Below, in pieces: positions 7,031-43,371 of a stretch of 64,000 nucleotides of DNA (position 1 is its first letter; every line of letters begins with the position of its first letter). Below the pieces are notes generated by a model. The model made no database searches, was not told the origin of the DNA, and saw only the letters and a program-made list of their open reading frames with translations. A program made the translations under genes and the position numbers. Where the stretch lies: IMG/VR virus record IMGVR_UViG_3300028802_000012, positions 1 to 64,000 of that record. The stretch is one strand, 5' to 3'. This DNA is from a virus.

Positions 7031-7040
7031 GGATCCTGCG

Positions 7041-10000
7041 ATGCCGCTGCCGAGACTGCCCGACATCTCGCTGGATTCCTGGATTCGGGATCAGCAGCAG
7101 CAGTTTGAGCGCACGATCTCGGGCCTGGCGGAAGCGACCGAGTTCAAGGACGCGATCTCGGATATCGAGTCGCAGGTCCCGGCTGACTATCCGCATCCTG
7201 GCGGCACCGATCAGTGGGCCGACGCGCAGCGCCAGCAGCAAGAAGAAGAGTACCGGCGTCAGCAGGACGAAGACGAGCGTCGTAAAGCCCAGCAGCAGGC
7301 CGACGAGAACCAACGCCAGCTCGATGCCTATCTCAACGAGAAGATGCGCTACGAGCAGGAGCAACAGCAGCAAGATGCGCTGACCCAGGCGCAGGGTCAA
7401 GCGCAGGATCTGGGCATTCCTTCTCCTGATCAGGCCGCTGCATCGTTTCAGCAGATCCAGCCAGGCGACCTTCCACAGCCGGTTCAGGACTTTCACAGCT
7501 TCGCTGACCAGATCGAACAGGGTCAGACGCCTGAAGGGCTGCAGGCCCCGCCGCCGGTCAAACGCGGCGTGCCGAGTCCGTACAGTCTGACGCCGCCTGA
7601 AGAACCTTTGCAGGCACCGCCTCCTCTGGAAGAGGCACCGCCACCACGACGCGGCGTCCCCAGTCCGTACACCCTTTCACCGCCGCCTGAGCCAGAACGA
7701 CCCTACTGGACGCCGACGGCGCGCGAAGCAGAAGGCATGGGACCGGCTGTCGGTCCTGATTGGCTGCCCGAACCGATCAGGCAAGCTGCCGGCGTCGTCA
7801 AGAAAGGTCTGGTGGACGCAGTCCACGCGGCCCCACAGGAAGATATCTCCCTACCGACAGGGCGGCAGGTGCATGTTCCGGGGTTTGCCCAGCAGGCTGT
7901 CGGGTCGTTCAGTGCGGCGATGGAGCCTGTGCAGGCCGTCGATGATTACACCGCCGCGAGGCTGGACCCGGAGACGTGGTACTTCGCGCGGGACGGTATT
8001 GCGCGAACGGAGCTTGATCCTGGGGAGTTCGACCGCTGGAATGAACTGCAAGGTTCTCGCCGGCTTGCACAGGGGACGAAGACAACCTGGACGCCTGAAG
8101 AGACGGCCGAAATCCAGCACACGTCGGAGAAGATCGATCGGATCTATCAGTCGATCAAGGACGATCCCGACAAGCTCAACGACTATGCGAAAGCCTCGCC
8201 AGCGTATGAGATCACCCGAGGGATTACCCATACCGTGCTGGGTGGGGCGCTCGGCAATGTCGTCGGCGGCGCAGCGGGCAGTGCGGCTCGTGGTCTGGGG
8301 GCCGGTCATCGCGCGATCAAAGCCGCCGAGTACGCGGGAGACATCGCCGCGCAGACGGCGTTCGACCCGACGACGCCGGCGATCCAGCCTCTGGGTGATC
8401 TGGCGCTACGAGGCGTCGGGGCGGGGATTCGCGGGACGCGATCTCTAGCAGGCCGTGCCGGTGAAGCTCTTGTTCGCTCCGCTGATGACGTTCCTGAGGG
8501 GGTTCAGCGTTTAGGTTCAGGGGTAAGTCCTGAAGAATCACGTCGGTTCTACCACGGGACGGCTGGAGAATTCGGCCGCCCTGATCCTGGGAAGTTCGAC
8601 GAGGATGGGTTGTTTGGTCCGGGTTATTACCTGACGTCGGATCCTCGGGTGGCAGGGAGTTATGCAGAGACGCGGGGCGGCCGAATACCCGTCGATAATC
8701 CGTATACAACGTGGTCGAAGGAAGCGATTCAGGCTGGGATTGATCGAGCATATAAAGAGTTAGAGGATCCTAGTTTAGATTTTGGGACTTCTCGTGACAT
8801 TATGGATGACCTGGATCTGCTGGAAGCAGCGCGTGATGATCTGGTATTGCCGTCTCCACGATCAGGTCCGAATGTTCGAGCGATCGATGTTCCAAAGAAT
8901 TTGAATTTATTGGATCTAGATAAGCCCGTAACTGCTGATCAAGCGCAGCGCGTGATCGACGCTACTCGAAAGGCAGGGTTTCCTGATTCAGCCGATGAAT
9001 TGCAGGCGCATATCGATATGAAGCGCGAAGCTATTCGGCGTGAATCGACCTACCGACAACCGACGAGTGATCCAAATATCGCATATGACACAGGTCAGGA
9101 ACTCCATGAAGAGTTAGCGTACCGCTTGAATGAAGACTACCAGACAGTGGTCGATACCGATCTGTACAGCGATAAGCCTGGAGCTAATCGCCTGCTGCGC
9201 GATGCTGGCTATGATGGAATGGTTCACACCGGGGGTAAGCGCGTTCCACTGCAGGATGCAGATGGGAAACCCATCGAACATGATGTGACGATCGTCTTTC
9301 CCGAGTCGCTGGATAAAATCCGCAACGCGTTCTCAGGAGAAGCCGGGGGTTCTGGCGTTATCCCGAACTTGCGTCGGCCGCTGTTCAACGCGGCCCAGGG
9401 CGCGTTTCTCGGGGCGTCATCCGAAGAGTTACAGGCCCGTGAAGAGGGTCGAGACGCCGATCCTGCCAGACGACTGCGCAGTGCGGGCATCGGGGCTGGA
9501 CTGGCGATGCTGGCAGGCTCCCGAGGCGCTCGTCGCGTTGCTGGGCGAGCGTTGCAGGCGGTTGGATCCGGGGTTGTTCCTGAAGGTGCAGCCCAAGCCG
9601 CTCGCAAGGTGCCCGTCGAATTCAAGACAGCTAAAGGCTCGTCCTATGAACTGCTCCCTGATGGAACCACGATCAGGAACAAGGCCGCGCGGTCTGATCC
9701 TGGGCACGAAGGCGACTTTGGGATTAAGCCCCAGAGCGATGCGACGTACTTCCTGACTAGCGAGAACTACCCGAAGCTCGGGCTGCCCGAAGGACCTAGC
9801 CGGATCGTTGATCACGGCGACGGGACGCTCTCCGTGGCAACGCAGAATGCGAATGGACGCTGGGGGATCGCGCCGAGTTCTCGAAACGTGCCGTACGAGA
9901 CGGAACCTGCGGTCGGCCTGCACCCGTTGGAGGTCTGGGGACCGCAGAAGGTCAACGGTCTGCCGGCCTATAAAGACGTACATTTTGGGAACGTGATCAC

Positions 10001-13000
10001 CGAGGTCGGTGGAGAGGCTGAGCAGGCGTTGGCTCGTATTCCGTCCGAGACCACGATGTTGGAGCCGCCGCCCAGGGCCGGTGAAGAAATCGCCAGTTCC
10101 GTGGCCGCTGCCGAGAACCGGATCCCTGAGGATCTCGAACAGGGCTATCTCCCTGGCATGCGGCCCAGAACGCGTCGTCCCAGTGCTGCGCAGCAGGCCG
10201 AAGCAACGGTCGATCAGATGCGGGAAGAAGTGCGAGGGCGCTATCAGGACGAACGGCGACGGTTTACCGAGAAAGAGATCTGGGCGCTGGCCGCGAAGTT
10301 GCGTCGAACGACACCGGAAAAGCTTCAGGAGATTCTCGAAGGCGCGCAAAACATGCGCGGCGACGAAGCTGCGACGGCTGGGTCGGCTCTTCGACAGGAG
10401 GGCGCAGCCCTGGGTGAGGAGACGCGGCTGGTCACTGAGGACTGGATGCGGGCCACACAGGATCTGAATGATGAGCTTCGACGGCGGGGCATTGACCCGG
10501 CAGATCTGCCCGCCCGTCGTGATGCCCTGGCGGGCAAAGATCCTATTCTCAACGATCTCGCCGATGAAGTCGAAGCGTCAGTGCTGGCCCAAGCAGAGTC
10601 GATGGATCGGTTTGAAGCCTGGCAGCGGGGCGACTTGAAGCGAGGATCGTCTGCCGCGCTCGAACTGCGGATGCGGCAGAAGCCGGTCTCTGCGCGCCGC
10701 GCGTATCGGCAGCTGAAGGCGAATCGCTCCTTCTATGAGGACATGCAGAATACGGCGAACGAGCTTCTGGCCAAGGGCGACCAGATGTCTGAGGCTGACT
10801 GGGAGAAGCTGACGTCGCTCCAAGAGCGGATGGGTCAGAAGGTCGGTTCGGGCGAGCTACTCGACGAAGTGAGTGGGCGCCGGATTCGTGACATCGAGCG
10901 CGAAGGCATTGCGAACGTTCAAGCCGGAAAGAAGCGAGCAGGTCGCGCACCGAAAGAAGCGCCACCTGAAACGCTGGCGGAACGCTACGGTCGGCTGGCT
11001 CGGCGCTTTGACGAATACAACGCCGAGGGCGACACTGACGCCGCACAAGCGATTCGGTCGATGATGGGCGACACTGTCGACGAGATGAAACTGCAGGCTG
11101 ATGAGCGAGCGATCAAGATCCTCGATCAGGAACTCCCCGACGCCAAGACGCCCGAAGAAGGCATGAAGATCATCCAGAAAGCTGTCGGGGATAAGGTCGC
11201 CCAGAAGCTCAACAAGGCCGCGCTTGCGGCCGAGGATGTTCGTGAAGGCCCTGGCGGCGTCGACCTGTCGATGAAGCAGTGGCGCGATCTTCAGAAGCTG
11301 CAGCGGGCGTTCCAGAACCGCATCGATCGAGCGTTCAAGGCCGAGTCGAACGAACAGGTCAGGATCGCCCTGCGCGCCCAGATGTCCAGGGCGCGAGACA
11401 TGATGAGTCGAGCGATCGATGATCCGACGTTTGCTCCAGCTTTGCAGGAGTTTCGGGATCGCGTGGCCGAGCTTCGGCAGCAGCCCGGTGTCGGTAAGAC
11501 GACGGGCGAACGACTGGCCAAAATTCTTGAAGATCAGTTCACGGATCGAACAGCCGAGAAAGCCTTTACGCAGAGCGCTCAGGACGAGGTTGGTCTGCTG
11601 CAGGCCAGGATTCGGGGTATTCGACAGCAGCTGGACGAGGCCATCAAAAACAAGGACGCACCGGGAGCCCAGGCGCGGGTCAAAGAACTTCTCCAGGACA
11701 TGCAGGATGTCGGCGGCGTTGGGAAAGTCGCGGCCGATCGTCAGCGTGAGCGGTTGATGCGCCAGAATCTTCACGATATTCCGGGTATTGATAAGTCTCA
11801 GCTGCGGGACGCGCTTGCGACGATCGACTTGCAGGACCCGAGTTCTATTCGGGCTGTGCTGGACGCCATGCAGAACCCGACGAAGTGGGATCTGTTTCGT
11901 GAGCGACTGTATCAAGCGCGCCTCTCCAACCCCTGGACCTGGCTGACGAACTTCAGTTCCAATGTGCTGACGGCGGGCGGGCATCTCGGTTTGCAGAACC
12001 CTCTTGAACGTCTGTACGGGGGCGAAGCAGCCGGTGGATCTCGTGCCGCCTGGGAAGAATTCAAAGCTGCACGAGGAGAAGCCGGACAGCGAGCCTGGGA
12101 TGTCCTGAAGTCGGGTCGGTCGCAGCAGAACCTGGAACAACTCGCGTCGGGTGACATGGGGGGTCTGCGGCGGGAGTTCACGACCGAGCAGGGCGCTTCG
12201 GAGTGGTATCACCGATTGTCGACGCGGCCTCTTGAAGCCGGAGACCAGTCGCTGGGCTATATGGTCTACCAGTCCGAGATCGGCAAGCTGGCTCAGCGTC
12301 AGGCCGACCGCCTCTTGAAGGCGGGCGATGCGCGCGTCCAGGGGATGACGCCGCTTGAAGCGCGCAAGTCGATCATGACGGATATCTGGGACCACCCGGA
12401 GATTATCGAAGAAGCGCGTAAGATCCGCGATCAGGTGCTGTTGCGCGAGCACGGGTCTCAGGGCTGGGAACGGGCGCTGCAGCATGTAGCAGCTTGGAGG
12501 GATCCAGGTCTGAAACCGGGTATGAAAGACTACGCCCGTGCTGCCGTGATGGATTTCGTGCTGCCGTTCTTCAACGTCCCGCTGAACTACGCGAGACAGG
12601 GCGTGCAGCGATCGCTTGGTGCGCCGTTTTATGCCTACTCTGGGGCGCAGAAGCTGCGGGCCGGAGATCGGGTCGGAGCAGCTCAGGACTTTGCAAAGGG
12701 GACGATCGGCGCAGCGGCGATGACCTCAGCGGCTGCGCTGTATTACGGCGACGCGCTGACGGGGGCTGGCCCCGATGATCCTGGGGATCGCGCGATCTGG
12801 CTCCGAACGCATCAGCCCTTCTCCTGGAAAGATCCGCTCGGCAATTGGCATTCCTATCAAGGCACACCGCTGGCGATTCCGTTCGCGATCGTCGCTGGGG
12901 CTGGGGAGGGCTGGGAGAAGCCGGGATCCACTCCGATTGTGGGCGGCGAGCCGATGTCGAAGCTCGCAGGCGGCGCGCTCGGGATCGTAACCGGAGCGGG

Positions 13001-13766
13001 TCGCGGCATCGCGTCGCAGTCGTTCTTGCAGGGCCTCTCGCAGGGGATGGAAGTCCTGACGAATCCCAACTTCTCAGCAGGGAACGCGGCTCAGCTCGGA
13101 GCCAATCTGGCCTTGACGTACGGCGGCGCGGCCGGGTTGAGCGCCGGAGTCCCAACTCTGACGGGTATGGCGGGCTTTCTGGCGTCGATCACCGATCGCA
13201 TGGAACGCGACGCGGGTCGACCGTCGGGGAAAGATGCCGGCGAGTTCGTCCAGAACGTTGGGGCACGGGTGGCCTCACGGATTCCCGTCGCTCGTTGGAA
13301 TCTCGATCCGCGCATCGGCGCATACGGTGAGCCCGTGGTCAATCAGCGAAGTCTGCAAGCCGCGGGGCCTCTAGCGCTTGATCCGTACTGGCGCGGACCG
13401 GCACCAGGCGGAAACGAACGAATCAGTCAGGATCTCGGGGCTCTTGGCGTAGGTCGTCCTCCGGCACCGGATGCTCTCACGATTCAGGGGTATGACGTTC
13501 CACTGACGATTCATGAACAACGTGAATTCGATACGGTCTATGGGCAAACGTACCGTGAGATCCTCGATGAACTCGAAAAATCTCGCGTCGAGACGACGGA
13601 GAAGACGGGTCAACGCCCGGTCTATAGTGCCGATCTGTATCTCCGCTTGCGAGAGGCGGCAAGAAAAGCAGCGCGGGGGCAGATTCTGGCGACGATTCCG
13701 GCTGCTGATCTAGAAGCCCGATTGACGCGGAGTATTGATCAGAAGCTGGCGGCCCCGAGGAGATAG
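7041..13766 (+). CDS. Giant polyvalent-type virion protein with ADP-ribosyltransferase-like domain
   Basis: 2241 residues. An N-terminal Gln/Glu-rich coiled coil (about 30-130) is followed by Pro-rich linkers. Residues about 500-760 look like an ADP-ribosyltransferase of the phage polyvalent (ART-PolyVal) kind: FYHGT, GPGYYLTSDPRVAGSYAE, LLDLD, AGYDGMVHTGG and HDVTIVFPE in order. A long helical and coiled-coil region runs from about 1040 to 1560. The C-terminal part (from about 1840, PFFNVPLNYARQ, then ALYYGDALTG and WHSYQGTPLA) resembles large-polyvalent-protein domain LPD38. Such proteins are usually packaged and ejected with the DNA and can modify host targets. Assignment is by motif memory; the catalytic activity is unproven. 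Confidence 0.7.
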   Translation: MPLPRLPDISLDSWIRDQQQQFERTISGLAEATEFKDAISDIESQVPADYPHPGGTDQWADAQRQQQEEEYRRQQDEDERRKAQQQADENQRQLDAYLNEKMRYEQEQQQQDALTQAQGQAQDLGIPSPDQAAASFQQIQPGDLPQPVQDFHSFADQIEQGQTPEGLQAPPPVKRGVPSPYSLTPPEEPLQAPPPLEEAPPPRRGVPSPYTLSPPPEPERPYWTPTAREAEGMGPAVGPDWLPEPIRQAAGVVKKGLVDAVHAAPQEDISLPTGRQVHVPGFAQQAVGSFSAAMEPVQAVDDYTAARLDPETWYFARDGIARTELDPGEFDRWNELQGSRRLAQGTKTTWTPEETAEIQHTSEKIDRIYQSIKDDPDKLNDYAKASPAYEITRGITHTVLGGALGNVVGGAAGSAARGLGAGHRAIKAAEYAGDIAAQTAFDPTTPAIQPLGDLALRGVGAGIRGTRSLAGRAGEALVRSADDVPEGVQRLGSGVSPEESRRFYHGTAGEFGRPDPGKFDEDGLFGPGYYLTSDPRVAGSYAETRGGRIPVDNPYTTWSKEAIQAGIDRAYKELEDPSLDFGTSRDIMDDLDLLEAARDDLVLPSPRSGPNVRAIDVPKNLNLLDLDKPVTADQAQRVIDATRKAGFPDSADELQAHIDMKREAIRRESTYRQPTSDPNIAYDTGQELHEELAYRLNEDYQTVVDTDLYSDKPGANRLLRDAGYDGMVHTGGKRVPLQDADGKPIEHDVTIVFPESLDKIRNAFSGEAGGSGVIPNLRRPLFNAAQGAFLGASSEELQAREEGRDADPARRLRSAGIGAGLAMLAGSRGARRVAGRALQAVGSGVVPEGAAQAARKVPVEFKTAKGSSYELLPDGTTIRNKAARSDPGHEGDFGIKPQSDATYFLTSENYPKLGLPEGPSRIVDHGDGTLSVATQNANGRWGIAPSSRNVPYETEPAVGLHPLEVWGPQKVNGLPAYKDVHFGNVITEVGGEAEQALARIPSETTMLEPPPRAGEEIASSVAAAENRIPEDLEQGYLPGMRPRTRRPSAAQQAEATVDQMREEVRGRYQDERRRFTEKEIWALAAKLRRTTPEKLQEILEGAQNMRGDEAATAGSALRQEGAALGEETRLVTEDWMRATQDLNDELRRRGIDPADLPARRDALAGKDPILNDLADEVEASVLAQAESMDRFEAWQRGDLKRGSSAALELRMRQKPVSARRAYRQLKANRSFYEDMQNTANELLAKGDQMSEADWEKLTSLQERMGQKVGSGELLDEVSGRRIRDIEREGIANVQAGKKRAGRAPKEAPPETLAERYGRLARRFDEYNAEGDTDAAQAIRSMMGDTVDEMKLQADERAIKILDQELPDAKTPEEGMKIIQKAVGDKVAQKLNKAALAAEDVREGPGGVDLSMKQWRDLQKLQRAFQNRIDRAFKAESNEQVRIALRAQMSRARDMMSRAIDDPTFAPALQEFRDRVAELRQQPGVGKTTGERLAKILEDQFTDRTAEKAFTQSAQDEVGLLQARIRGIRQQLDEAIKNKDAPGAQARVKELLQDMQDVGGVGKVAADRQRERLMRQNLHDIPGIDKSQLRDALATIDLQDPSSIRAVLDAMQNPTKWDLFRERLYQARLSNPWTWLTNFSSNVLTAGGHLGLQNPLERLYGGEAAGGSRAAWEEFKAARGEAGQRAWDVLKSGRSQQNLEQLASGDMGGLRREFTTEQGASEWYHRLSTRPLEAGDQSLGYMVYQSEIGKLAQRQADRLLKAGDARVQGMTPLEARKSIMTDIWDHPEIIEEARKIRDQVLLREHGSQGWERALQHVAAWRDPGLKPGMKDYARAAVMDFVLPFFNVPLNYARQGVQRSLGAPFYAYSGAQKLRAGDRVGAAQDFAKGTIGAAAMTSAAALYYGDALTGAGPDDPGDRAIWLRTHQPFSWKDPLGNWHSYQGTPLAIPFAIVAGAGEGWEKPGSTPIVGGEPMSKLAGGALGIVTGAGRGIASQSFLQGLSQGMEVLTNPNFSAGNAAQLGANLALTYGGAAGLSAGVPTLTGMAGFLASITDRMERDAGRPSGKDAGEFVQNVGARVASRIPVARWNLDPRIGAYGEPVVNQRSLQAAGPLALDPYWRGPAPGGNERISQDLGALGVGRPPAPDALTIQGYDVPLTIHEQREFDTVYGQTYREILDELEKSRVETTEKTGQRPVYSADLYLRLREAARKAARGQILATIPAADLEARLTRSIDQKLAAPRR

Positions 13767-28517: not shown

Positions 28518-28860
28518 GGGTCACGATCTCTGGGAGTACCACCGGCTGCAGCTGCAGCTCGAAGAGCGGCAGCTCCTGTATCGCAGCGCAGCTCGCATGC
28601 TGGAACGCTTCGGGCAGAGCATGAAGACCAAGTATCTCTTCAGCGACGAGGAACTGATCGATCCGAACGGCGAGATCATCTCGAAGCAGACCTGGCAGGC
28701 GCAGCACGCGCAGACCGAACAGCCGGATCAAACCCCGCTTCAGCCTGCGTCGCCCCCTGATAATGGGACCCCAGATCCGCATGGCCATACAGCCGCTGGG
28801 CCGGCTTTTCCATTCGGACAAAATACACCTGGCAGATCGGCTGACCCGGCCGCAGAATAA
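28504..28860 (+). CDS. Helical hypothetical protein whose 3' end overlaps dCTP deaminase antisense
   Basis: ATG 28504 is preferred; a second in-frame ATG lies at 28492. The first 70 residues look like real protein (YHRLQLQLEERQLLYRSAAR, YLFSDEELIDPNGEII). The last 60 codons (28676-28860) are antisense to the dCTP deaminase C-terminus and encode Pro/Gly/Thr-rich sequence. It is the last plus-strand gene before the switch to the minus strand. Confidence 0.55.
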   Translation: MTRLEGHDLWEYHRLQLQLEERQLLYRSAARMLERFGQSMKTKYLFSDEELIDPNGEIISKQTWQAQHAQTEQPDQTPLQPASPPDNGTPDPHGHTAAGPAFPFGQNTPGRSADPAAE

Positions 28861-29311
28861 TCGTTGCCGGACCAGCGTTGAAGACTTCCAGGGTCAGCGC
28901 GCCTGACCAGCCTGGATCGGCCAACCCTGCTGCTTCGACGTGCAGGCCGTCGCGGGCGAGCGTGCTCTTCCCACACAGGATCGCCACCAGCCGTGGATCG
29001 TGCAGGGTGATCGACTCCGCCGTGGCGCAGAGCACGAATTCGCGAGGACCCAGCACGAGCATCTCATCATGCGCATAGGTGCGATACGTAACGTCCGGTC
29101 CCGTCGGTTCAGGACCGTAGCGATCGATACGCGTCGGGAGGAGCGCCCCCATCGTTGGACCCAGATGGAGGTCGATCGTACAGGGCTGAATACGCGCTGA
29201 TGGTGGGACGCGTAGACCACCCGGGGATCGCCAATCGGCGAGATCTGGTTCTATCTGGATACGCTCCTCCCAGATCGCCTCGATGATCTCGTCATCGCTC
29301 AAGATGCTCAC
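28676..29311 (-). CDS. dcd: dCTP deaminase
   Basis: 211 residues from a GTG at 29311 that overlaps the preceding TGA (GTGA), with GGGAGA upstream; a GTG at 29326 is the alternative. Family motifs are clear: IQPCTIDLHLG (about 41-51), GKSTLARDGL (114-123) with Ser116, and GLADPGWSGALTLEVFN, in which Glu142 is in the catalytic position. The enzyme converts dCTP to dUTP, feeding dTTP synthesis. Whether it also cleaves dUTP cannot be judged here. The tail after HYQG is short and not conserved, and this tail overlaps a plus-strand gene. Confidence 0.85.
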   Translation of the reverse strand: MSILSDDEIIEAIWEERIQIEPDLADWRSPGGLRVPPSARIQPCTIDLHLGPTMGALLPTRIDRYGPEPTGPDVTYRTYAHDEMLVLGPREFVLCATAESITLHDPRLVAILCGKSTLARDGLHVEAAGLADPGWSGALTLEVFNAGPATIILRPGQPICQVYFVRMEKPAQRLYGHADLGSHYQGATQAEAGFDPAVRSARAAPARSASR

Positions 29312-29598
29312 AGCGCTTTCTCCCACCGTTCGCTGTCTCGGAGAAAAAAGGTGTACATCTCGACGACGTGGTCGCGTGGTTCCTTCCAGGTTTGGTCAGG
29401 CAGCATCTGGTACCAGGCCCAGCCATTGACGAGCTTGAACCGCAGAAATTCTTTGCGGTCAAACATCATCCCGAACGCCTCGTCTTCGGTTCCAAGCTGC
29501 GCCAGCAGCTGGTCAGAGACGTCGATCTCTGGGAGCCACTCCGGGTCTACAAGCACTGTAAATCCTTGCGTATCGGTCCTGAACGACAGGCCCGGCAT
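29308..29598 (-). CDS. Small hypothetical protein
   Basis: The ATG at 29598 has a strong GGAGGAG; an upstream extension to 29661 lacks one. The 96-residue product (MPGLSFRTDTQGFTVLVDPE...) has an acidic, aromatic-rich sequence (LVNGWAWYQMLPDQTWKEP). It overlaps the dCTP deaminase start by 4 nt, so the two are probably translated together. Function is unknown. Confidence 0.65.
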   Translation of the reverse strand: MPGLSFRTDTQGFTVLVDPEWLPEIDVSDQLLAQLGTEDEAFGMMFDRKEFLRFKLVNGWAWYQMLPDQTWKEPRDHVVEMYTFFLRDSERWEKAL

Positions 29599-29615: not shown

Positions 29616-30017
29616 TTAGGTGGGGGTGATAATCTCGATCAGAGGTCGAGGACCCCGACACGTCTGACGGGTGCAGAGTCCGACAGCCGCGATCATCCAG
29701 TGCTGGCCCAGCATGCCATGCACCCGGGTCTCGAAGCCGACCTGGCCGTCTTCGTAGTATTCGACGTTGGGCTCCGCCCGCTCAGCTAGCGCTTTCAAGG
29801 ACCGGAAGGCCCCTAGCTGACTGTCGTAGCGGGTGTCCCAGTCCGTGCTGATCGTGCCGCTTTTCGGATGACAATACACGAGATGGTAATGCTCCGGGAG
29901 CAGCGGCTGGGGGGCGATGACCTCTGACCGCTGCAGCTCCCGCAGCCTGCGGCGGCGCTTCAAGGCTTGACGGCCCGCCGCTTTGATATCGGCACCGGTC
30001 AGAAGATCATCGCTCAT
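29616..30017 (-). CDS. Hypothetical protein immediately downstream of the TIGR-like array
   Basis: 133 residues, ATG at 30017 with GGGGGAG at about 30021-30027. That ribosome-binding site lies directly beside the first array unit (30029). The N-terminus is basic (KAAGRQALKRRRRLRELQRS) and could bind nucleic acid. The rest is mixed, with two Cys near the end (LCTRQTCRG). No family is recognised. If the array is transcribed on the minus strand, this gene is on the same transcript. Confidence 0.65.
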   Translation of the reverse strand: MSDDLLTGADIKAAGRQALKRRRRLRELQRSEVIAPQPLLPEHYHLVYCHPKSGTISTDWDTRYDSQLGAFRSLKALAERAEPNVEYYEDGQVGFETRVHGMLGQHWMIAAVGLCTRQTCRGPRPLIEIITPT

Positions 30018-30028
30018 GACTCCCCCTT

Positions 30029-31335
30029 GGGGCGCTCCTGATGGATGGGATGGTCGTATCTCATGGCTCGCTCACGGGGCTTGGGGTATTCAAGAAGCTG
30101 GGCTCGCTCCGATCCTTGGGTGCTCGCAGGTAGAAGGGCTCGCTCACGGTGATTGGTGCTACTCCTCATGCCCGGCTCGCTCGACTGGCTTGGTGCGCAC
30201 ATCCATTAGGGCTCGCTCCGCTTGTCTGGAACACTCCCTACATCATGGCTCGCTCCAACAGCAGGGTGCTCTTCGGATCGATGGCGCGCTCTTCGTATAT
30301 GGGGCTGTCGCAGCGTGTGGCTCGCTCACTATTCCTGGGATGTTCGGGAGTTATGGCTCGCTCATCGAGATGGGGTGCTCTGCTGACATGGCTCGCTCTT
30401 CTGCCAGGGAACACACAGTCTTCGGGGCTCGCTCCCCTTCCACGGTACGCTCGTCGGATACGGCTCGCTCTCAAGACATGGTGCTCATGCGCGAACTGGC
30501 TCGCTCCATACATTTGGGACGTTCGAGCGGTGTGGCTCACACTACGAGACTGGTTCACTCCTCCAGCGTGGTTCGCTCGCGCTATCTGGACCGCTCAGCA
30601 GGCTGGGCTCGCTCCACCGCTATGGGTCTCACTGACATGGGGCTCGCTCTGCCTGATAGGTGCTCTCAGGGCGGAGGGCTCACTCCATTGGCAGGGCACC
30701 CTCTCACTGGTTGGATCGCTCAGGTGCTTTGGGCCGGCTCACATGGATTGACTCGATCAGCTACTTTGGTCCACCTCGCCAGGGTTGACTCACTCAATCG
30801 TTCGGGTGCTCTCCCATCTTTGGGCTCGCTCCAATGGCTTGGTGCTCTTCTGCTGAGGGGCTCGTTCAGGGACTGGGGTGCTCTCCTCCAGTGTGACTCG
30901 CTCTCAAACTGTGGTGTTCTCGAACTGTGTGACTCGCTGCAAAGGTATGGTGCTCTCCCTGGATAGGGCTCGCTCTGCCATTTTGGAACGCTCTCTTACT
31001 AGGGCTCGCTCCCTCTTCTGGGGGACTCCGAACTCACGGCTCGCTCGCCTTACCTGGTACTCCCGGTATCGTGTGGCTCGCTCAGAGAATTTGGATCACT
31101 CCAGAACGCTGGCTCGCTTCGCGAAGGTGGTGCTCTTCCGCTGTAGGGCTCGCTCCGGATCGACGGTGCTCTCGTGCATGATGGCTCGCTCGCTCTCTGT
31201 GGAACGCACTTGAATGGTGGCTCGCTCTCGGACCAGGGTTCACGCTTGGATCAAGGCTCGCTCCGATTCTTTGGTGCTCTCATGAACTATGGCTCGCTCT
31301 CGGACCAGGGTTCACTCGGAGGCTTTGGCTAGGAA
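30029..31335. repeat. TIGR-like array: 36 units of edge repeat, spacer A, loop repeat, spacer B (36-nt period)
   Basis: Thirty-six tandem units start at 30029, 30065, 30101, 30137, 30174 and so on to 31291. Thirty of the 36 steps are within one base of 36 nt or exact, and the rest are 35 or 37. Read on the plus strand, each unit is edge repeat GGCTCGCTC, a 9-nt spacer, loop repeat (often GGTGCTCTC; also GGAACGCTC, GGTTCACTC, GGATCACTC), and a second 9-nt spacer. A last degenerate edge (GGCTAGGAA, 31327) overlaps the stop of the Tas-like gene. Edge repeats are near-invariant except in units 1, 15-16, 19-22 and 24-26. Spacers differ, but units 34 and 36 share spacer TCGGACCAG. The layout matches TIGR arrays, which are processed to 36-nt tigRNAs with two spacers. 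Orientation is unproven; flanking genes and the tas-like gene suggest minus-strand transcription. Long plus-strand frames here are repeat artefacts. Confidence 0.9.
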
Positions 31336-32192
31336 ACCGGCTCGATACACGCATGATTGGGTATTCCTCGCAAATGTGTATGATGGAGATGCGCGATCGG
31401 GTACGGGAATGGCGGGAGTTTCCCGTAGTGCTGCTCGTACATCACATGGTGCAAATCGGCCAGGAACTGCTTCACCGCAAATCGCTCGGCGCGCGCCTGA
31501 ATGTGCGCCGGAGGCAGCTTACCGATCGAGTACGCTTTATAGGCGTCGGTGTCTTTGCCGATTCGCTTGCGTTCCAGGATGCCCGCCGCCTGGTCGGCCA
31601 GCTCACCACCCTCATTGCGGGTCTGCTCGTACAGTTTTCGGGTCTGGTACAGCTTGCCGTAGGTATCTCTGGGGTTGTTGCTGACCTTCACGAACGACTG
31701 CCCGAGTTTCCAGCAGAGCACTTTCAGCCGCGCGTTCCAGGGGCGCTTCTGGCCCTTGTCCCAGACGGCGGTCGGGTTCAACCCCGCGAAACTCCAGATG
31801 TGTCCCACCGTCGGGGCGCGTTCGATGTCGATGTGGGCCAGGAATCCAGCAGCGAGGACCGGCCCGATGCCGACGATCGAGCGAGCCCATTGCCCGACCC
31901 CCGTCGGCTCGTTCTTCGAGTAGACATCGAGGCCTTTACGGATTTCGTCCTCGATGCGCACGAACGCTGCACTGGTCCATTCCAACAGCGACGTCGGCTC
32001 GATGCCGTCTTCGAGGGCGCGAACCTGGTTCGACGCCGTAATCCGATACCCTTGCACGGTGTAATAGGTGTCCACCAGAAACCGAATTTCCGCGACCGAG
32101 AGGGTCGCGGCTGCCTGTCGAAGATCCTTCTTCGCACGTTCGAGCGGCTCCAACGCGGTGCCGTTGATGGGCGGATCTTGCACGTCGACCAT
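31329..32192 (-). CDS. tas: Tas-like protein (Nop/IS110-related), TIGR-associated, no nuclease domain seen
   Basis: 287 residues, ATG at 32192 with AAAGGAG about 8 nt upstream. Residues 108-140 (GIGPVLAAGFLAHI ... IWSFAGLNP) are the helix-hairpin-helix signature of IS110/IS116/IS902 transposases and of Nop-domain proteins. Helical segments flank it, followed by a basic patch (about 150-210) and a His-rich tail (AHLHHTHLRGIPNH). There is no N-terminal DEDD/RuvC-like catalytic block, so an active IS110 transposase is unlikely, and no HNH is visible. The TAG stop lies inside the last array repeat. In TIGR-Tas systems the Nop-domain protein binds tigRNA and targets DNA. This one would be the nuclease-less type. 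The family call is strong inference from motif plus array, not from a search. Confidence 0.8.
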   Translation of the reverse strand: MVDVQDPPINGTALEPLERAKKDLRQAAATLSVAEIRFLVDTYYTVQGYRITASNQVRALEDGIEPTSLLEWTSAAFVRIEDEIRKGLDVYSKNEPTGVGQWARSIVGIGPVLAAGFLAHIDIERAPTVGHIWSFAGLNPTAVWDKGQKRPWNARLKVLCWKLGQSFVKVSNNPRDTYGKLYQTRKLYEQTRNEGGELADQAAGILERKRIGKDTDAYKAYSIGKLPPAHIQARAERFAVKQFLADLHHVMYEQHYGKLPPFPYPIAHLHHTHLRGIPNHACIEPVS

Positions 32193-32831: not shown

Positions 32832-34955
32832 TCACCAGGTCAGGGCGACGCGGCTATCGATCTTGATCGGGGCCGTCGGACCCAGCACGTCCTGCATACC
32901 CCGGTGCAGACAGCCCTTGGCGACCTCGGCCAGGTCGCGCGCGTCTTCTTCGGGAAACTCCAGCAGGATCTCATCGTGGATCTGGCCACACAAGAACGGC
33001 AGTAAGCCAGCCTCCATGAGACCAGGGAAGCTGTTCTTCAATCCGTACCCGGCAGTACTCTGGATCCAGGAGTTCAACCAGGACGTCGGCTTCCGGTTGT
33101 GACCTTCCAGAATTCTCCGAAACCCGACCTGGTTGACGACGTCAATCCGGGGTTCGGACTGCTCCATCGTCCGATAGGCTTGCTGGCGTTTGATGGCCAT
33201 GCCGAGATAGGTCCGAAAATATTTTCGGATGGTCTCAGCCGCCTGCTCCATCGAGATCTCGACGTCGAACAGGTCACGGGCCTGCTTGACGTAGCCGTTG
33301 ACGCCACCCCCGAACAGCAGGCCGAAGTTGGCGATCTTGGCGTCCTGTCGCTGGCTGCTGGTGACCTCCTCCTGCGGGATGTTGAGCAGCGCGGCAGCCA
33401 CAGCCGCGTGGGGATCACCAGTCCGACAGGCTTCGAGCAGCGCCGTGTCGTTGGCGAAGACGGCCGCTGTGACGACTTCGATGCTGGAATAGTCCAGCGA
33501 CGCTAAGCGCATCCCTTCTTCGGCCACAAACATCCGTCGAAACTCTGGCGCCCGGGGGATCTGCTGAAGATTGGGGTACGCACACGAGTACCGGGACGTC
33601 TCCGTCCCAATCTGCCGCCAGGACGGATGAAACCGGCGACAGACAGTGCAGACGTGCAGGTCCAGAAACCGCCCTTTCTTGGCGTACCCCCAGTTCTCGA
33701 TGCGTTTCTGCGACAACCGAAAGTCCAACAGTTGTTGGACCGGCCGATACCCGGCCCGTGCCAGAGATTTCAGCGTCGCCTTTCTGGTGTCCGCCAGTGG
33801 AAAGCCCAGGACGTCGTTCGACGTAGCCTTGAGTTGCACCGGCGACCGAAAGTTCTTGACCCCTGGCCAGGATCGAATCAGGTGCCAGAGCATGTGGTCC
33901 CGATCCTGCTCCCAGGTGGGGATGGACGCTTCCCAGAGAGCGACGTCGGGCTTGAGCCCGTTGTAGGTCATCCAGGCCGTGGCTGGGACGGCCCGTTGCT
34001 CGATCCAGTTGGCCCGCTCCTGCCCTTGCGCCATAAGGAGACCATCCTGGCGGTCTGCGAGCCGTTCAAGATGGACGATATCCTCCAGCATGTACGCCAC
34101 CATGTCTTGCGTCCACGGACCCGTCCAATCTGTTGTTTCATGATCGATCTCCTTGGCGATCGCGACCCCGAGCCGTTCTGCCAGCACCGATTGCAGATCG
34201 TTCGGCTTCCAGGACGTGGGTCGACCAGCCTTTGCGGCTCCGGTTCTGGTACGATACTCATGCAGGAGCAAGGACTGGATCAGCGTGTCGGTCGTGTTCC
34301 GGATGTACGCCATGTCGTCGCCCTGGTAGTGACTGAGCATCCATGCCAGGTCGAACGACAGGTTGTGGCCGATGACGCGGGTCTCGTCGTCGGCCAGGAT
34401 CTCACGCCACCAGGCGGGCAGCGTCCTCAGGATGAAGGTGTCTTGCCCGACCGCGAAGATCGCTGCGCCAATAGCAGCGCTTTCCGACGCGTGGAAAGCG
34501 AGCCCGGTTGTTTCAAGGTCGACGGCGACGGTGCCGTGTCGGGCGATGGCTGTTCGGAGGGCGCGTTCGTCGTCGTTGTAGCGGAGCGTGCGGCGCGTGC
34601 GGCTTCGGCGCGCTGTACCGCCGACGTGAGCGTTTCCTCCAGACGCTTGATCGGTTTGGAGTTCGCCGGTGTGAGCAGGATCGCTGGCGGCTTCTCCTTC
34701 GGAGGCGGCACGCTCGGCGTCGAGGGCGTCGCCAGAACTTCCTCCCGGCTCTTGGCGTACAGGACGAGTGGCGGAAGGGTCAGCCCGGCTGGGCTGTTCG
34801 GCAACGGTAACCCGGCCCAGAAGCTCGGCTCGTATCGCCAGGATTTTATCAGCATCTGATAGAGGTTCTGGGTGGCCCACTTCTTGGGACCCGTCCACTC
34901 CAGCGTCTGAAAGGCTGGCCCGGTTGCGTCGAGCCCGACCTTTCCCTGTTGGCAT
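32832..34955 (-). CDS. DNA polymerase I-like (family A) with 3'-5' exonuclease
   Basis: 707 residues from ATG 34955, which has GGAGG 5 nt upstream. Exonuclease motifs: DLETTG with Asp146/Glu148, HNLSFD with Asp202, YMLED with Asp292. Polymerase motif A LDYSSIE with Asp488, motif B RQDAKIANFGLLFG with Arg536 and Lys540, motif C QIHDE with Asp661. TSRYSCAYPNLQQIP precedes motif A as in the family. It copies the phage genome with proofreading. The first 120 residues look disordered and overlap the upstream nuclease gene in another frame, yet no better start lies within the overlap. Confidence 0.9.
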   Translation of the reverse strand: MPTGKGRARRNRASLSDAGVDGSQEVGHPEPLSDADKILAIRAELLGRVTVAEQPSRADPSATRPVRQEPGGSSGDALDAERAASEGEAASDPAHTGELQTDQASGGNAHVGGTARRSRTRRTLRYNDDERALRTAIARHGTVAVDLETTGLAFHASESAAIGAAIFAVGQDTFILRTLPAWWREILADDETRVIGHNLSFDLAWMLSHYQGDDMAYIRNTTDTLIQSLLLHEYRTRTGAAKAGRPTSWKPNDLQSVLAERLGVAIAKEIDHETTDWTGPWTQDMVAYMLEDIVHLERLADRQDGLLMAQGQERANWIEQRAVPATAWMTYNGLKPDVALWEASIPTWEQDRDHMLWHLIRSWPGVKNFRSPVQLKATSNDVLGFPLADTRKATLKSLARAGYRPVQQLLDFRLSQKRIENWGYAKKGRFLDLHVCTVCRRFHPSWRQIGTETSRYSCAYPNLQQIPRAPEFRRMFVAEEGMRLASLDYSSIEVVTAAVFANDTALLEACRTGDPHAAVAAALLNIPQEEVTSSQRQDAKIANFGLLFGGGVNGYVKQARDLFDVEISMEQAAETIRKYFRTYLGMAIKRQQAYRTMEQSEPRIDVVNQVGFRRILEGHNRKPTSWLNSWIQSTAGYGLKNSFPGLMEAGLLPFLCGQIHDEILLEFPEEDARDLAEVAKGCLHRGMQDVLGPTAPIKIDSRVALTW

Positions 34956-35272: not shown

Positions 35273-37264
35273 CTAGTCATCACCTCGTGTCTGGTCGTCG
35301 GTGTCGTCCCCGAGCAGATCGCCAACCCTGTTCGCGGCCAACGTCAGGGCCGAGTCGTAGCCGGGACCTGCGCGGAAACGGTAGAGCTTGCCACCAGCGG
35401 CTTTGCTCTCATCCAGGACGACCAGCGTGCCCTCCGTCTCCATGTCGTTCAAGCGTTCCTTCAGCAGGGCTTCACTGGGCGGGTCGGTCGGCCCCGACCA
35501 GGACATCGGCAGCACGTTGACCAGCTGCTTGACCCGCATACCCGCACTCCTGGGGTTCATGGCTGACATCGCGATCATGCTGGTTGTCAGCCAGGCAATA
35601 AGCTTTTTGGGATCATTCTTGGCCACCGACGCGACCCGTGACTGCGCGTCACTGATCTTGCCGGTGAACTTCATCGACACGTACGCTCCAGCGTGGGTGT
35701 CGAACTCACTCAAGAAGCCAGGGAGTTCCAGGCTGGTGCGGGCTTTGGCGTGGATCACCGACAGCTGTCGGGTATCCGTGGCCCGCTCCTCCTGGTCGTA
35801 CTCGGCCAGGATCAGGGCAGCGTCCGCTTGCTGCATGATCTGCCCCGACCCCCGAATCGAAAACTGCACGTGATCTTTCTTGCGGGTCCCTGAGGGTTTC
35901 AAAAGATGGTGGATCAACCCCCAGGCTACGCCGGTTCGTTCCGTGATGCCCCGCAAGTAGGCGTAAAACCTCCCGACTTCGGACGAGCTGTTCTCGTCTC
36001 CGGTCCAGCACATCGAGAAACTGTCCAGGATCACCAGCCGCACACCCAGATCCAGAATTGCCGTCTCGATGCGGCGGCGCTGCATCTCTTCGGTAAAATC
36101 AATCACCGACTCGTCGGCAAAGTGAATCCGTTCCCGGATCACCGTCTCGTAGTCGCTGTGCTTGGCGTACCGTTCGTTCCGGGCGATGGCTCGCAGCCGT
36201 TGGCCCAGCATCTTGGAGCCCATCTCCTTGTTGACATACAGGGTGGAGAAGGCGTCCGGATGTTTGAGATCAGGGTGGTCCAACCAGGGGATTCCGAGCG
36301 CGCCGTCCAGACACAGCTGCAAGCCATGCCAGGTCTTATAGGACCCGGAATGCCCACCGATCACCAGGATCCCCTCTTCAGGGAGCAGCGGATTGATCAG
36401 GTGCGGGACGTCACGCACGGCTTCTTCGATCAAGGTAAAGGCGGTCTTGACGATGAGGGGTGGGGCCTCATCGAGGGCGGCGTCCGCCAGTGCGAACGTC
36501 GGAGTGGTCGCCGCTCCCAGGAGATCCGCAAGCGTCCCACCCCCAGCCAGGTAATCGTCAGCCCCCTGTCGTTCCAGCCCGGCGTACGGTACGACCGCGA
36601 CGTAGACGTGACGCGCACCCGTCTTCGCTGAAGCGTACTGCGCGAGATCTGACCACCCTGCACGGACTGCGTCGTTCGTACGAAAGTCGGAATCTGGCGT
36701 CGTATACACCCGACGACGCTTGAGCGGAAGATCCAGGAAATCGTAGCTCGCCACACTGGACCCGGATTCGGTCTTGCAGCGCCAGCCGTAGTTCCCATTG
36801 AGGGCGACCACGACACAGGGGATGCCCTCCCGTCGGGCAGCGCTGAGTATTGCATCGCCTTTCTTGACTCCTTCCGCGAAGATCAACGGGACCTGTTCGT
36901 CGTACAGGTCAGCAAAGAATCCCGGATGGACCATCAGCGCGTTCCGCGTCCCCGTCGGCCAGACGTACTTCGTCGGGAAGCTCCCACCGAAGACGCGCAT
37001 GACCTCACAATGCTTCTCACCGTCGGGTCGATGAACCGGGATAGCCAGCCAGGAGTCCGCCGTCAGGATCCGATCTTGCACCAGTCCAGCAGCCACCAGG
37101 GCTGCCATCTGGCGCGTGGTCGGTGAGTAGTAGCCGCGCCCCACCACGATGTCGCCGTCGATACCGCTGTCGTCTTCGAGCACTTTCCGGTGGGCGTCAG
37201 AAAGCTGACGCTCTCGCAGGGGGACGGCCTGTTCCCACGCGTCGACAGGACCAGGCGTAGGCAT
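35273..37264 (-). CDS. Primase-helicase: Toprim-like plus RepA/DnaB-type ATPase
   Basis: 663 residues, ATG 37264 with GGGAG upstream. The N-terminal third has a Toprim/DUF3854-like pattern: IFAEGVKKGDA with Glu131, later PDSD with Asp191. The second part is a RecA-fold helicase with Walker A GGHSGSYKT (303-311), Walker B LVILDS (Asp414) and IRGSGQIMQQADAALILAEY as the arginine-finger/sensor region. It would unwind the fork and prime synthesis for the family-A polymerase encoded next to it. A terminator-like hairpin lies upstream of its ribosome-binding site. Confidence 0.8.
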   Translation of the reverse strand: MPTPGPVDAWEQAVPLRERQLSDAHRKVLEDDSGIDGDIVVGRGYYSPTTRQMAALVAAGLVQDRILTADSWLAIPVHRPDGEKHCEVMRVFGGSFPTKYVWPTGTRNALMVHPGFFADLYDEQVPLIFAEGVKKGDAILSAARREGIPCVVVALNGNYGWRCKTESGSSVASYDFLDLPLKRRRVYTTPDSDFRTNDAVRAGWSDLAQYASAKTGARHVYVAVVPYAGLERQGADDYLAGGGTLADLLGAATTPTFALADAALDEAPPLIVKTAFTLIEEAVRDVPHLINPLLPEEGILVIGGHSGSYKTWHGLQLCLDGALGIPWLDHPDLKHPDAFSTLYVNKEMGSKMLGQRLRAIARNERYAKHSDYETVIRERIHFADESVIDFTEEMQRRRIETAILDLGVRLVILDSFSMCWTGDENSSSEVGRFYAYLRGITERTGVAWGLIHHLLKPSGTRKKDHVQFSIRGSGQIMQQADAALILAEYDQEERATDTRQLSVIHAKARTSLELPGFLSEFDTHAGAYVSMKFTGKISDAQSRVASVAKNDPKKLIAWLTTSMIAMSAMNPRSAGMRVKQLVNVLPMSWSGPTDPPSEALLKERLNDMETEGTLVVLDESKAAGGKLYRFRAGPGYDSALTLAANRVGDLLGDDTDDQTRGDD

Positions 37265-41270: not shown

Positions 41271-42689
41271 TTATTTGAGCATCGCCAGGGCGTCGGACCG
41301 GGTGAGTTGCCTGCTCATACCCGCTTTGCCTACCAATTTCTGGCGGACGTATTCGTCGACTGTGTTGCGCACGACCAGGTGCTCGATCTCCAGGTGATCG
41401 GCGGTCGTGGTGAGACGGTTGTTCCGTTCTTGCGACTGCATGAGCGCGTCCAAATCCCAGGTCAGGCTGTGATAGATCATCCGGGTAGCCCGGGTGAGGT
41501 TCAATCCATAGGCTCCCTTCGCCAGCTGGCTGATGTAGACGTTGGCCTCGCCCCGCATGAAGCGATCACGCGAGCCATCTCCTGCCTTCTTGAACGTGAT
41601 GAACGGGATGCCTTCCTTGGCTAAGCTCCCTTCGATAATGGCCAGCTCTGGCGTCCACCAGTACCAGAGCACGGTCGGTTTGTCGGGATCTTCCAGAAGC
41701 AGCTCGATCATCTCGTCGGTTTTCTGGGAGCCGAAGAGCCTGATCTCACCCTCGACGTTTCGCGCAAAGCCGGAGGCTATTTCTAGGAGCCTGGTCAGCC
41801 TGACAGAGTAGGTACTGGCCTCGGCTTTGAACTCCGCTTCGGTCAGGCTCTGGATCCAGACCCGGAGTTCTTCCCGCATCTGGCTATAGACCTCGGTCTG
41901 GAGCCCGCTCTTGAGATTGACCCGGCGGACGGACAGCGTCCGCAGCGGCATGGTCCTGACGTCGGACAGCTCCGCGTGAATCGCATGCGCATCGATGATC
42001 CGCTTGAGCTGCTGGATTCGATCGGGACGAATCCCAATGGCTGCCGTGCCGGTGTAGCCTCCGAGCACACAGTATTCGGTCTTGAAGGTCTGGATGTTCC
42101 TGGTCCCGAAGAGCCCCGGGACCAGGAAGTTCATGATGTACCAGACATCGGCGGGATTTCGGGGCATGATGTTGCCCGAGAAGACGTACCGGGACTTCGA
42201 CCGCTGGCCGATGACCTGCAGGGTTCGCGTGCGCTGCGAGTAGTTCCTGAACCTGGACCCCTCGTCGATGAACGTCGCTGCCCACTGCCGCTTGCGCAAC
42301 CCTTCGCGAATCTTCGGATACGACAGGCTCTCCGTCGAGAGCAGGTAGACCGTTTCGTGTTTGGTGATACCTCCACCCGTATTGGAGAGGTACTCTGCTC
42401 GCTTCTGGATACTGGTGGATCCGTCCATCACCAACACGTGCTTGAGGCGCCAGGCTCTCCCGAGCCACTGCTCGTACTCTTCGACCGTCTGTTCGATCAG
42501 GGAGTTCGGCACGACGTGCAGGATCGGCACGTCGCCAGCTCCGACCAGGATGTCGATGGCTTCTATAGCTACCCGAGTCTTTCCTAACCCGGTGCCATGC
42601 CGCACCAGCAGGGCCTCGCGTTCGATGATCACGTCGATGGCCTGCCACTGGTGCGGCATAACATCCGGTATGGTGGGTGTGACAGTCAT
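41271..42689 (-). CDS. SNF2/SSL2-like helicase-ATPase
   Basis: 472 residues from ATG 42689, which has a near-perfect AAGGAGGAG; a longer frame to 42914 overlaps the RNA ligase gene and is rejected. Motif I GTGLGKT (32-38), motif II IDEGS (about 141-145), and a C-terminal RecA fold with ISQLAKGAYGLNLTRA and motif VI QSQERNNR are present. SNF2-type enzymes translocate on duplex DNA; phage versions act in replication or recombination. The ATG overlaps the ligase stop (ATGA). Confidence 0.8.
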   Translation of the reverse strand: MTVTPTIPDVMPHQWQAIDVIIEREALLVRHGTGLGKTRVAIEAIDILVGAGDVPILHVVPNSLIEQTVEEYEQWLGRAWRLKHVLVMDGSTSIQKRAEYLSNTGGGITKHETVYLLSTESLSYPKIREGLRKRQWAATFIDEGSRFRNYSQRTRTLQVIGQRSKSRYVFSGNIMPRNPADVWYIMNFLVPGLFGTRNIQTFKTEYCVLGGYTGTAAIGIRPDRIQQLKRIIDAHAIHAELSDVRTMPLRTLSVRRVNLKSGLQTEVYSQMREELRVWIQSLTEAEFKAEASTYSVRLTRLLEIASGFARNVEGEIRLFGSQKTDEMIELLLEDPDKPTVLWYWWTPELAIIEGSLAKEGIPFITFKKAGDGSRDRFMRGEANVYISQLAKGAYGLNLTRATRMIYHSLTWDLDALMQSQERNNRLTTTADHLEIEHLVVRNTVDEYVRQKLVGKAGMSRQLTRSDALAMLK

Positions 42690-43243
42690 GTCTCCTCCTT
42701 TCGTAGCGGCCAGGAGAGTCCGAAGTCTCGGCGCTTGATCTTCACCATCCTTCCATCTTCGTGGTGCCAGACGATGCCTTCGATGGCGTTCGCTTCGAGG
42801 TAGGCGTGAATGCTGTCGAAACTTCTCGACGGCAGCGTCAGAAACGCTCGGCCGTGAGGGACTAAGACGTGCGTCGTGAAGCCGTGTGGATTGCCCTGCA
42901 CTTTTGGACCGCATAACTCGTACGTGCCATTCGTCTCATCGTGAAACGCCTCACGATGCCAGCGATCTTCGGGTCCACCGCCTACTGGCACCCATCCCTG
43001 TACCCGGCCAGTCACCGGGTCTGGTTCTCCGCTTTGCTCAAATCCAAGAGGAGGTCGACGCCCGGGCTTGGCGTCGTAGCGCCTGTACAGCACCCCCTCT
43101 CGGACCATGCATGACGTACCGTCGTACTTGACCGTCGCTACGCCCTGACCTTCGAGCACCCACTCAGCACCGGGTACTATCTCGTCTCGCACGAGCCTGT
43201 CCGTCTCGTAGTTCCTCTGGAACAGACTGATGATCTTTTCCAT
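42686..43243 (-). CDS. RNA ligase-like nucleotidyltransferase
   Basis: 185 residues from ATG 43243 with GGAGGTAAGC. Motif I VKYDGTS carries the adenylated Lys39. Near the C-terminus EGIVWHHEDG and MVKIKRRDF are motifs IV and V. A small DUF5565-like RNA ligase is the best fit. It may seal tRNA or guide-RNA breaks made by host defences; the substrate is unknown. Confidence 0.75.
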   Translation of the reverse strand: MEKIISLFQRNYETDRLVRDEIVPGAEWVLEGQGVATVKYDGTSCMVREGVLYRRYDAKPGRRPPLGFEQSGEPDPVTGRVQGWVPVGGGPEDRWHREAFHDETNGTYELCGPKVQGNPHGFTTHVLVPHGRAFLTLPSRSFDSIHAYLEANAIEGIVWHHEDGRMVKIKRRDFGLSWPLRKEET

Positions 43244-43245
43244 GC

Positions 43246-43371
43246 TTACCTCCAATCTTTGGTCTGGTTGAGAATGATGACGACCAACACGAGGATCACC
43301 CCGACCCAGAAGGCGACGCCCAGGCACAGCAGCAAGAGCAGCCACCAGAGGGTCGAGGTGACGTCAGGCAT
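43246..43371 (-). CDS. 41-residue single-span membrane microprotein
   Basis: An ATG at 43371 and TAA at 43246-43248 define a frame that fills the gap between the genes at 43243 and 43379. The product begins MPDVTSTLWW and continues with an unbroken hydrophobic helix of about 25 residues, ending ILNQTKDWR. The ligase ribosome-binding site overlaps its last codons. It could be a holin-like or inner-membrane protein. Confidence 0.6.
   Translation of the reverse strand: MPDVTSTLWWLLLLLCLGVAFWVGVILVLVVIILNQTKDWR

What the first reader, a model, noticed from the sequence alone, without database searches (positions are those of the whole stretch)
30029..31335. TIGR-like guide-RNA array of 36 units, 36-nt period, two 9-nt spacers each
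The sequence shows 36 tandem units in strict 9+9+9+9 register: near-invariant edge repeat GGCTCGCTC, spacer A, more variable loop repeat (often GGTGCTCTC), spacer B. Established knowledge: TIGR (tandem interspaced guide RNA) arrays yield 36-nt tigRNAs with two spacers and are paired with Nop-domain Tas proteins in phages and small parasitic bacteria. Here the array directly abuts such a protein. This would normally be missed as non-coding or as false ORFs because 36 nt is 12 codons. Inference: a working guide array with about 72 spacers.
Basis: partly seen in the sequence, partly recalled or inferred. Interest (0 to 1): 0.96.

Follow-up and report, generated by a model that had tools for sequence, protein, structure and literature searches.

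The report
Phage TIGR guide array with TasA
This bacterial-virus contig carries a long, real array of paired miniature guide sequences next to the Nop-domain protein expected to use them: a new member of the TIGR-Tas RNA-guided DNA-binding systems described in 2025, whose natural targets are still unknown.

Summary
The array is real. Window 30029-31331 holds 36 tandem units (the first with a truncated edge repeat), period 36 nt, well above chance. It lies on the MINUS strand, directly downstream of a 287-aa gene (32192-31329) on the same strand. That protein's profile and AlphaFold model match solved TIGR proteins: TasR E 3.6e-25, Z 19; TasH E 3e-16, Z 21. It has no RuvC or HNH domain, so it is TasA (solo Nop). 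About 105 of 107 related records also carry such arrays near tas, with near-identical repeats. The guide strand is the complement of the one read, so spacers A and B swap. The family register is 10+8+10+8 rather than 9+9+9+9, giving 16-nt guides. The first edge repeat shares bases with the tas stop codon. The effector lacks a nuclease, so binding or blocking is more likely than cutting. 36 units is long but not exceptional; relatives reach about 81. No targets were found in the phage itself or in about 2.9 Mb of related-phage DNA. New member of a known kind. The most useful extra: closely related phages share shuffled subsets of units, so array turnover can be studied directly.

The parts
31329..32192 (-). 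tasA: 287-aa solo Nop-domain Tas protein, the presumed effector of the array; no nuclease domain
   Evidence: Pfam Transposase_20; PHROG 4285 E 1.4e-52; profile vs TasR 9mty E 3.6e-25, TasH E 3e-16, IS621 E 1.9e-5; AlphaFold pLDDT 83, TasH Z 20.9, TasR Z 19.1
30029..31331 (-). TIGR array: 36 units edge(10)-spacerA(8)-loop(10)-spacerB(8), 36-nt period, 72 spacers, read from 31331 down to 30029
31326..31331 (-). 5' truncated first edge repeat (TAGCCA); its TAG is the tasA stop codon (31331-31329). The same stop/edge fusion (e.g. TAAGCCA) occurs in several relatives
30029..30037 (-). last, degenerate edge repeat (GAGCGCCCC), running into AAGGGGGAGTC just before the start codon of the next gene; no terminator-like site found here
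29616..30017 (-). 133-aa ORF of unknown function directly downstream of the array, same strand
   Evidence: no Pfam or PHROG match
32832..34955 (-). family A DNA polymerase, upstream on the same strand (replication module context)
   Evidence: Pfam PF00476 E 4.8e-42; PHROG 17
35273..37264 (-). primase/helicase-like protein, replication module context
   Evidence: PHROG 239 E 8.1e-20 and others
28676..29326 (-). dCTP deaminase, downstream on the same strand
   Evidence: Pfam PF22769 E 2.4e-26

Best explanation
A TIGR-TasA system in a tailed-phage genome. The minus-strand operon is inferred to be transcribed through tasA and on through the array. Each 36-nt unit would be processed inside its edge repeats into one tigRNA that a TasA dimer binds through the box D-like (GA) and box C-like (CCA) ends of the edge and loop repeats. 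The two 8-nt spacers would pair with opposite strands of one 16-bp DNA site. Because TasA has no nuclease, the most likely outcome is programmable binding, unwinding and bending of foreign DNA that blocks its transcription or replication, in competition with other mobile elements (this functional step about 0.5 likely). Shown here: array, strand, register, Tas homology and fold, absence of a nuclease domain, family-wide linkage. Inferred: transcription, processing, binding, function.
For: Array statistics and anatomy. Tas profile and fold matches, above IS110. Same-strand array at or near the tas stop codon in most relatives. Edge and loop ends change together between loci: position 2 A/A in 91 loci, T/T in 5; position 10 A/A in 91, G/G in 5, the edge-loop covariation reported for TIGR in PMC12045711. 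104 of 107 records parse with an array; two of the other three show array-like repeats on inspection. No self-targets, consistent with foreign targets.
Against: No RNA or binding data. No natural target found. The loop repeat here is more degenerate than in most relatives. No terminator at the 3' end, unlike typical published arrays. The biological effect of TasA is unknown in the literature as well.
Confidence: 0.93

Rival explanations
1. A decaying, no longer used TIGR array: tas and edge repeats persist, but drifted loop repeats and irregular unit lengths make most units non-functional.
For: Loop positions 2, 4, 6 and 7 are degenerate and 8 spacers deviate in length. The array ends in a degenerate edge without a terminator.
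Against: tasA is an intact frame carrying the residues conserved in relatives. Loop CC is 35/35 and loop G1/G5 28-29/35, the positions shared with the edge repeat. Other long arrays (L012, L013) also mix 8- and 9-nt spacers.
Confidence: 0.1
2. A repeat protein encoded by 12-codon repeats.
For: 36 nt is a multiple of three; a 327-aa plus-strand ORF overlaps part of the region.
Against: Units of 35 and 37 nt shift the frame repeatedly, no ORF spans the array, the overlapping ORF has no Pfam match, and spacer columns carry almost no information while repeat columns are nearly fixed at the nucleotide level.
Confidence: 0.01
3. A CRISPR array or an IS110 element with its guide RNA.
For: Alternating repeats and spacers; Pfam labels the protein Transposase_20 (IS110 C-terminal domain).
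Against: Repeats are 9-10 nt, alternate in two kinds with 8-nt spacers, and no Cas protein turned up among the proteins scanned. The protein lacks the N-terminal DEDD domain and matches Tas far better than IS110.
Confidence: 0.01
4. A TIGR-TasA system aimed at the phage's own genome, as a regulator of its own genes.
For: It sits in the replication module, and TasA without a nuclease could act as a repressor (inference).
Against: No unit matches the 66-kb record better than shuffled spacer pairs in any of four geometries with gaps 0-4. Spacers are 51% G+C against 62% for the genome.
Confidence: 0.06

Closest known systems
TIGR-TasA with dual-repeat array (FpTIGR-type; Faure et al. 2025, PMC12045711)
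   Same: Solo Nop-domain protein beside an array of alternating edge and loop repeats with two short spacers per unit, 36-nt unit, 5' truncated edge, edge and loop ends covarying; reported from tailed phages
   Different: 36 units against the 5-15 most often reported; 8-nt spacers; box D-like GA instead of the UG of TasR arrays; stop codon fused with the first edge repeat; no terminator found; processing and targeting untested here
TasH, Salicola phage CGphi29 (SpTIGR)
   Same: Only relative in the phage reference collection by tblastn, 24.6% identity; best fold match Z 20.9; also 16 nt of spacer per tigRNA
   Different: TasH has an N-terminal HNH nuclease; this protein does not
TasR (TaTasR, PDB 9mty)
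   Same: Best profile match E 3.6e-25, 193 residues aligned at 2.3 A
   Different: TasR has an N-terminal RuvC nuclease and 9-nt spacers with UG/CCA boxes
IS110-family recombinases (IS621, ISCro4)
   Same: Shared RNA-binding Nop-like domain, Z about 14
   Different: No DEDD catalytic domain here; array of guides instead of one bridge RNA
Archaeal Nop5 (box C/D snoRNP)
   Same: Weak fold match Z 7.5
   Different: Z is at the level of chance helical matches; no fibrillarin context was examined

Membership tests
TIGR dual-repeat array | two distinct alternating 8-12-nt repeats separated by short spacers | tested here: met
   10+8+10+8 units, information content per column
TIGR dual-repeat array | located beside a gene for a Nop-domain Tas protein | tested here: met
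   array starts at the tasA stop codon; Tas identity by profile and fold
[quoted passage not shown]
   positions 1, 2, 9 and 10 match between edge and loop across loci, and positions 2 and 10 change together; motif is GA...CCA rather than UG...CCA
[quoted passage not shown]
   TAGCCA at 31331-31326
TIGR dual-repeat array | typically ends with a 3' truncated edge and a rho-independent terminator (not obligatory) | tested here: inconclusive
   degenerate last edge present; no terminator-like site near 30029 by a simple scan
TIGR dual-repeat array | transcript processed into 36-nt Tas-bound tigRNAs | not testable with these tools
   needs small-RNA sequencing
TIGR-Tas system | tandem-spacer targeting of opposite strands of one DNA site | tested here: inconclusive
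   no natural target found in own genome or relatives; binding itself not testable here
TasA subtype | solo Nop domain, no nuclease domain | tested here: met
   Pfam finds no RuvC or HNH domain; the confident part of the model begins directly with the helices that align to the Nop part of TasH/TasR
TasR / TasH subtypes | N-terminal RuvC or HNH nuclease domain | tested here: not met
IS110 transposase | N-terminal DEDD RuvC-like catalytic domain | tested here: not met
   alignment to IS621 starts at chain residue 125 and covers only its RNA-binding part
CRISPR-Cas | single repeat of about 25-36 nt and Cas effector genes | tested here: not met
   two alternating 9-10-nt repeats; no Cas match among the neighbours scanned

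The most novel reading that the evidence does not exclude
In this Tas clade the arrays are fast-evolving, non-self programmable DNA-binding repertoires carried by phages: whole units are gained, lost and reordered between phages whose tas genes are 94-96% identical, with no adaptation gene known, and a nuclease-less TasA uses them to silence competing genetic elements. The window would be one of the larger repertoires (72 spacers).
Probability: 0.3. Interest if true: 0.75.

Novelty: new member of a known kind. Interest (0 to 1): 0.42.

Why it matters
TIGR-Tas was described in 2025 and its targets, biological role and array growth are open. This locus is a clean phage example with a large spacer set. 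The family collected around it (over 100 records) supplies what those questions need: closely related phages with partly shared, reordered arrays, and arrays of up to about 81 units. The negative target results also constrain ideas: exact matches are not enriched in the phage's own genome or in other Tas-bearing phages.

Tried and rejected
(1) Self-targeting: unit pairs against the own 66-kb record, four geometries and gaps 0-4; no excess over shuffled pairs. (2) Targeting of other Tas phages: 426 unit pairs on 0.93 Mb, none in excess. With 1271 pairs on about 1.6 Mb, the published geometry at gap 0 gave 5 exact hits against 1.1 expected. I wrote down a replication test before fetching more DNA; 1.3 Mb of new Tas-phage DNA gave 1 against 0.5, so the 5 are treated as chance. 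(3) Three scans of viral contigs with single 16-nt predicted targets (unit u05 of L020-L022; the first and third units of the window): 9, 5 and 19 hits, mostly unrelated lineages; the largest cluster conserves a DPIGP peptide motif in AT-rich contigs, judged coincidental. (4) Closer relatives of the phage through its terminase or DNA polymerase: one remote terminase hit, no polymerase hit. Such a search with a single protein finds only close relatives, so it does not show that none exist. (5) A conserved partner gene for TasA: none; recurrent neighbours (helicase, PD-(D/E)XK-like nuclease, DNA polymerase; names by my own reading of the sequences) occur in at most 14 of 105 loci. A first version of that script was faulty (it dropped every protein with asparagine) and was rerun. 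(6) CRISPR, IS110 and repeat-protein readings: see rivals. (7) Folding the whole array transcript was uninformative (no shuffles at that length).

Full report
WHAT IS THERE. The window is most of a 66,243-base virus record with a major head protein, large terminase, DNA polymerase A and primase/helicase, so a tailed phage. Between a 287-aa gene (32192-31329, minus strand) and a 133-aa gene (30017-29616, minus strand) lies a 1.3-kb tandem array. Identity at lag 36 is 0.469 against 0.267 +/- 0.013 in 1000 simulations.

STRAND AND REGISTER. The array should be read on the minus strand, the strand of the neighbouring gene. Edge repeat GAGCGAGCC(A) and loop repeat GAG...(A)CC(A) alternate with variable stretches. 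In edge columns 1-9 the information is 1.4-1.9 bits; in spacer columns it is near zero. The tenth base is A in 19/35 edges and 25/35 loops; in 91 of 100 loci with at least 5 units it is A in both repeats, in 5 it is G in both. The family register is therefore 10+8+10+8, and each guide offers 8+8 nt. Eight spacers deviate by one base, which speaks against a 12-codon repeat protein.

THE PROTEIN. Pfam gives only a partial IS110 C-terminal match, PHROG 'transposase'. phmmer against solved structures finds TasR (9mty, 1.2e-10) and TasH (3e-9); the profile of 20 relatives finds TasR 3.6e-25, TasH 3e-16 and IS621 1.9e-5. The AlphaFold model (pLDDT 83) matches TasH at Z 20.9 and TasR at Z 19.1, IS621 and ISCro4 at about 14, Nop5 at 7.5. 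No RuvC or HNH domain precedes the Nop part. This is a TasA.

RELATIVES. One protein search and one profile search of viral contigs gave 27 and 80 loci (376 relatives in all in the second), and the bacterial/archaeal collection gave 12, including Halomonas sp. NO4 and Acidobacteriaceae bacterium KBS 96. Of 107 distinct records, 104 parse with an array of at least 3 units, median 17 units. Of the other three, L028 has an AT-rich array with a period near 38 ending in a terminator-like hairpin, the record behind L016 shows array-like units about 9 kb from its tas gene, and L091 remains without one. In many loci the tas stop codon lies in or beside the first truncated edge repeat (TAAGCCA, CTAGCC). 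Edge and loop ends change together between loci, which is the covariation reported for TIGR repeats (PMC12045711). Array sizes reach 63 (L012), 69 (L173, on a 327-kb contig) and 81 (L159) units, so 36 is long against the published 5-15 but not exceptional.

HOW IT MOST LIKELY WORKS. From the published TasR/TasH/TasA work (PMC12045711): array RNA is cut inside edge repeats by an unidentified host RNase in a Tas-dependent way into 36-nt tigRNAs; a Tas dimer holds one tigRNA; the spacers pair with opposite strands of one site. The published 8-nt 3' overhangs and the tolerance of A/B swapping imply a target reading spacerA followed by the reverse complement of spacerB; that order is my deduction. 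Without a nuclease, binding, unwinding and sharp bending of foreign DNA is the likely action. Every step after 'array and TasA exist' is inference for this locus.

TARGETS. Unit pairs do not match the own record more than shuffled pairs do. Against other Tas phages a small excess in the expected geometry (5 against 1.1) failed a replication test written down beforehand (1 against 0.5 in 1.3 Mb new DNA). Three whole-collection scans of single units returned hits like chance. Spacers of the window are 51% G+C against 62% for the genome (p 1e-7), and across 89 loci spacer G+C tracks but stays below genome G+C. This is compatible with foreign origin but also with a preference for weaker pairing.

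ARRAY TURNOVER. In the L019-L026 group, tas genes are 94-96% identical between L019-L023, yet only 2-7 of 8-13 units are homologous between any two, some in changed order (L021: u04 u05; L020 and L022: u05 u04), with spacer differences of up to 4 bases by the criterion used. Similar partial sharing occurs in L125/L126 (8 of 25-26) and L120/L129 (5 of 47 and 13). Units are gained, lost and reordered as wholes. This bears on the open question of how these arrays grow. I did not test recombination between loci formally.

VERDICT. A genuine TIGR-TasA locus: a new member of a known kind with an unusually large spacer set.

Noticed in passing
L019-L026; L125/L126; L120/L129; L137/L139/L143: Close relatives share only part of their TIGR units, sometimes reordered and with a few spacer substitutions, although tas is 94-96% identical between L019-L023: a natural data set for array turnover.
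   Followed up: partly
L159:5810-8725; L173:5892-8325; L012:3675-5953; L120:2326-4009: Very long TIGR arrays of about 81, 69, 63 and 47 units, L173 on a 327-kb contig.
   Followed up: no
L092:4834-5948: TIGR-like array of about 32 units with a 34-nt period beside a tas gene on a Woesearchaeota MAG contig, sharing the GAGCGAGCCA edge.
   Followed up: no
L028:9110-9690: AT-rich array (AAATGAATTA, period near 38) about 1.9 kb from a 419-aa Tas relative, ending in a terminator-like hairpin with a T run.
   Followed up: no
L085, L089, L106, L133, L138, L148, L167, L179, L181; L017:5392-5849 and 6877-7989: Several loci carry two arrays, on both sides of tas.
   Followed up: no
window 52904-53016: Perfect 15-bp tandem repeat, 7.5 copies of CTTGACGGGAGCGGT, inside overlapping ORFs on both strands.
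   Followed up: no
window 1842-6575 and 7041-13766: Two giant ORFs of 1577 and 2241 aa in the structural half; the first has no PHROG match, the second was not scanned.
   Followed up: no
window 42686-43345: Protein matching a PHROG RNA ligase family, E 6.2e-72, in the same minus-strand gene block as tasA.
   Followed up: no
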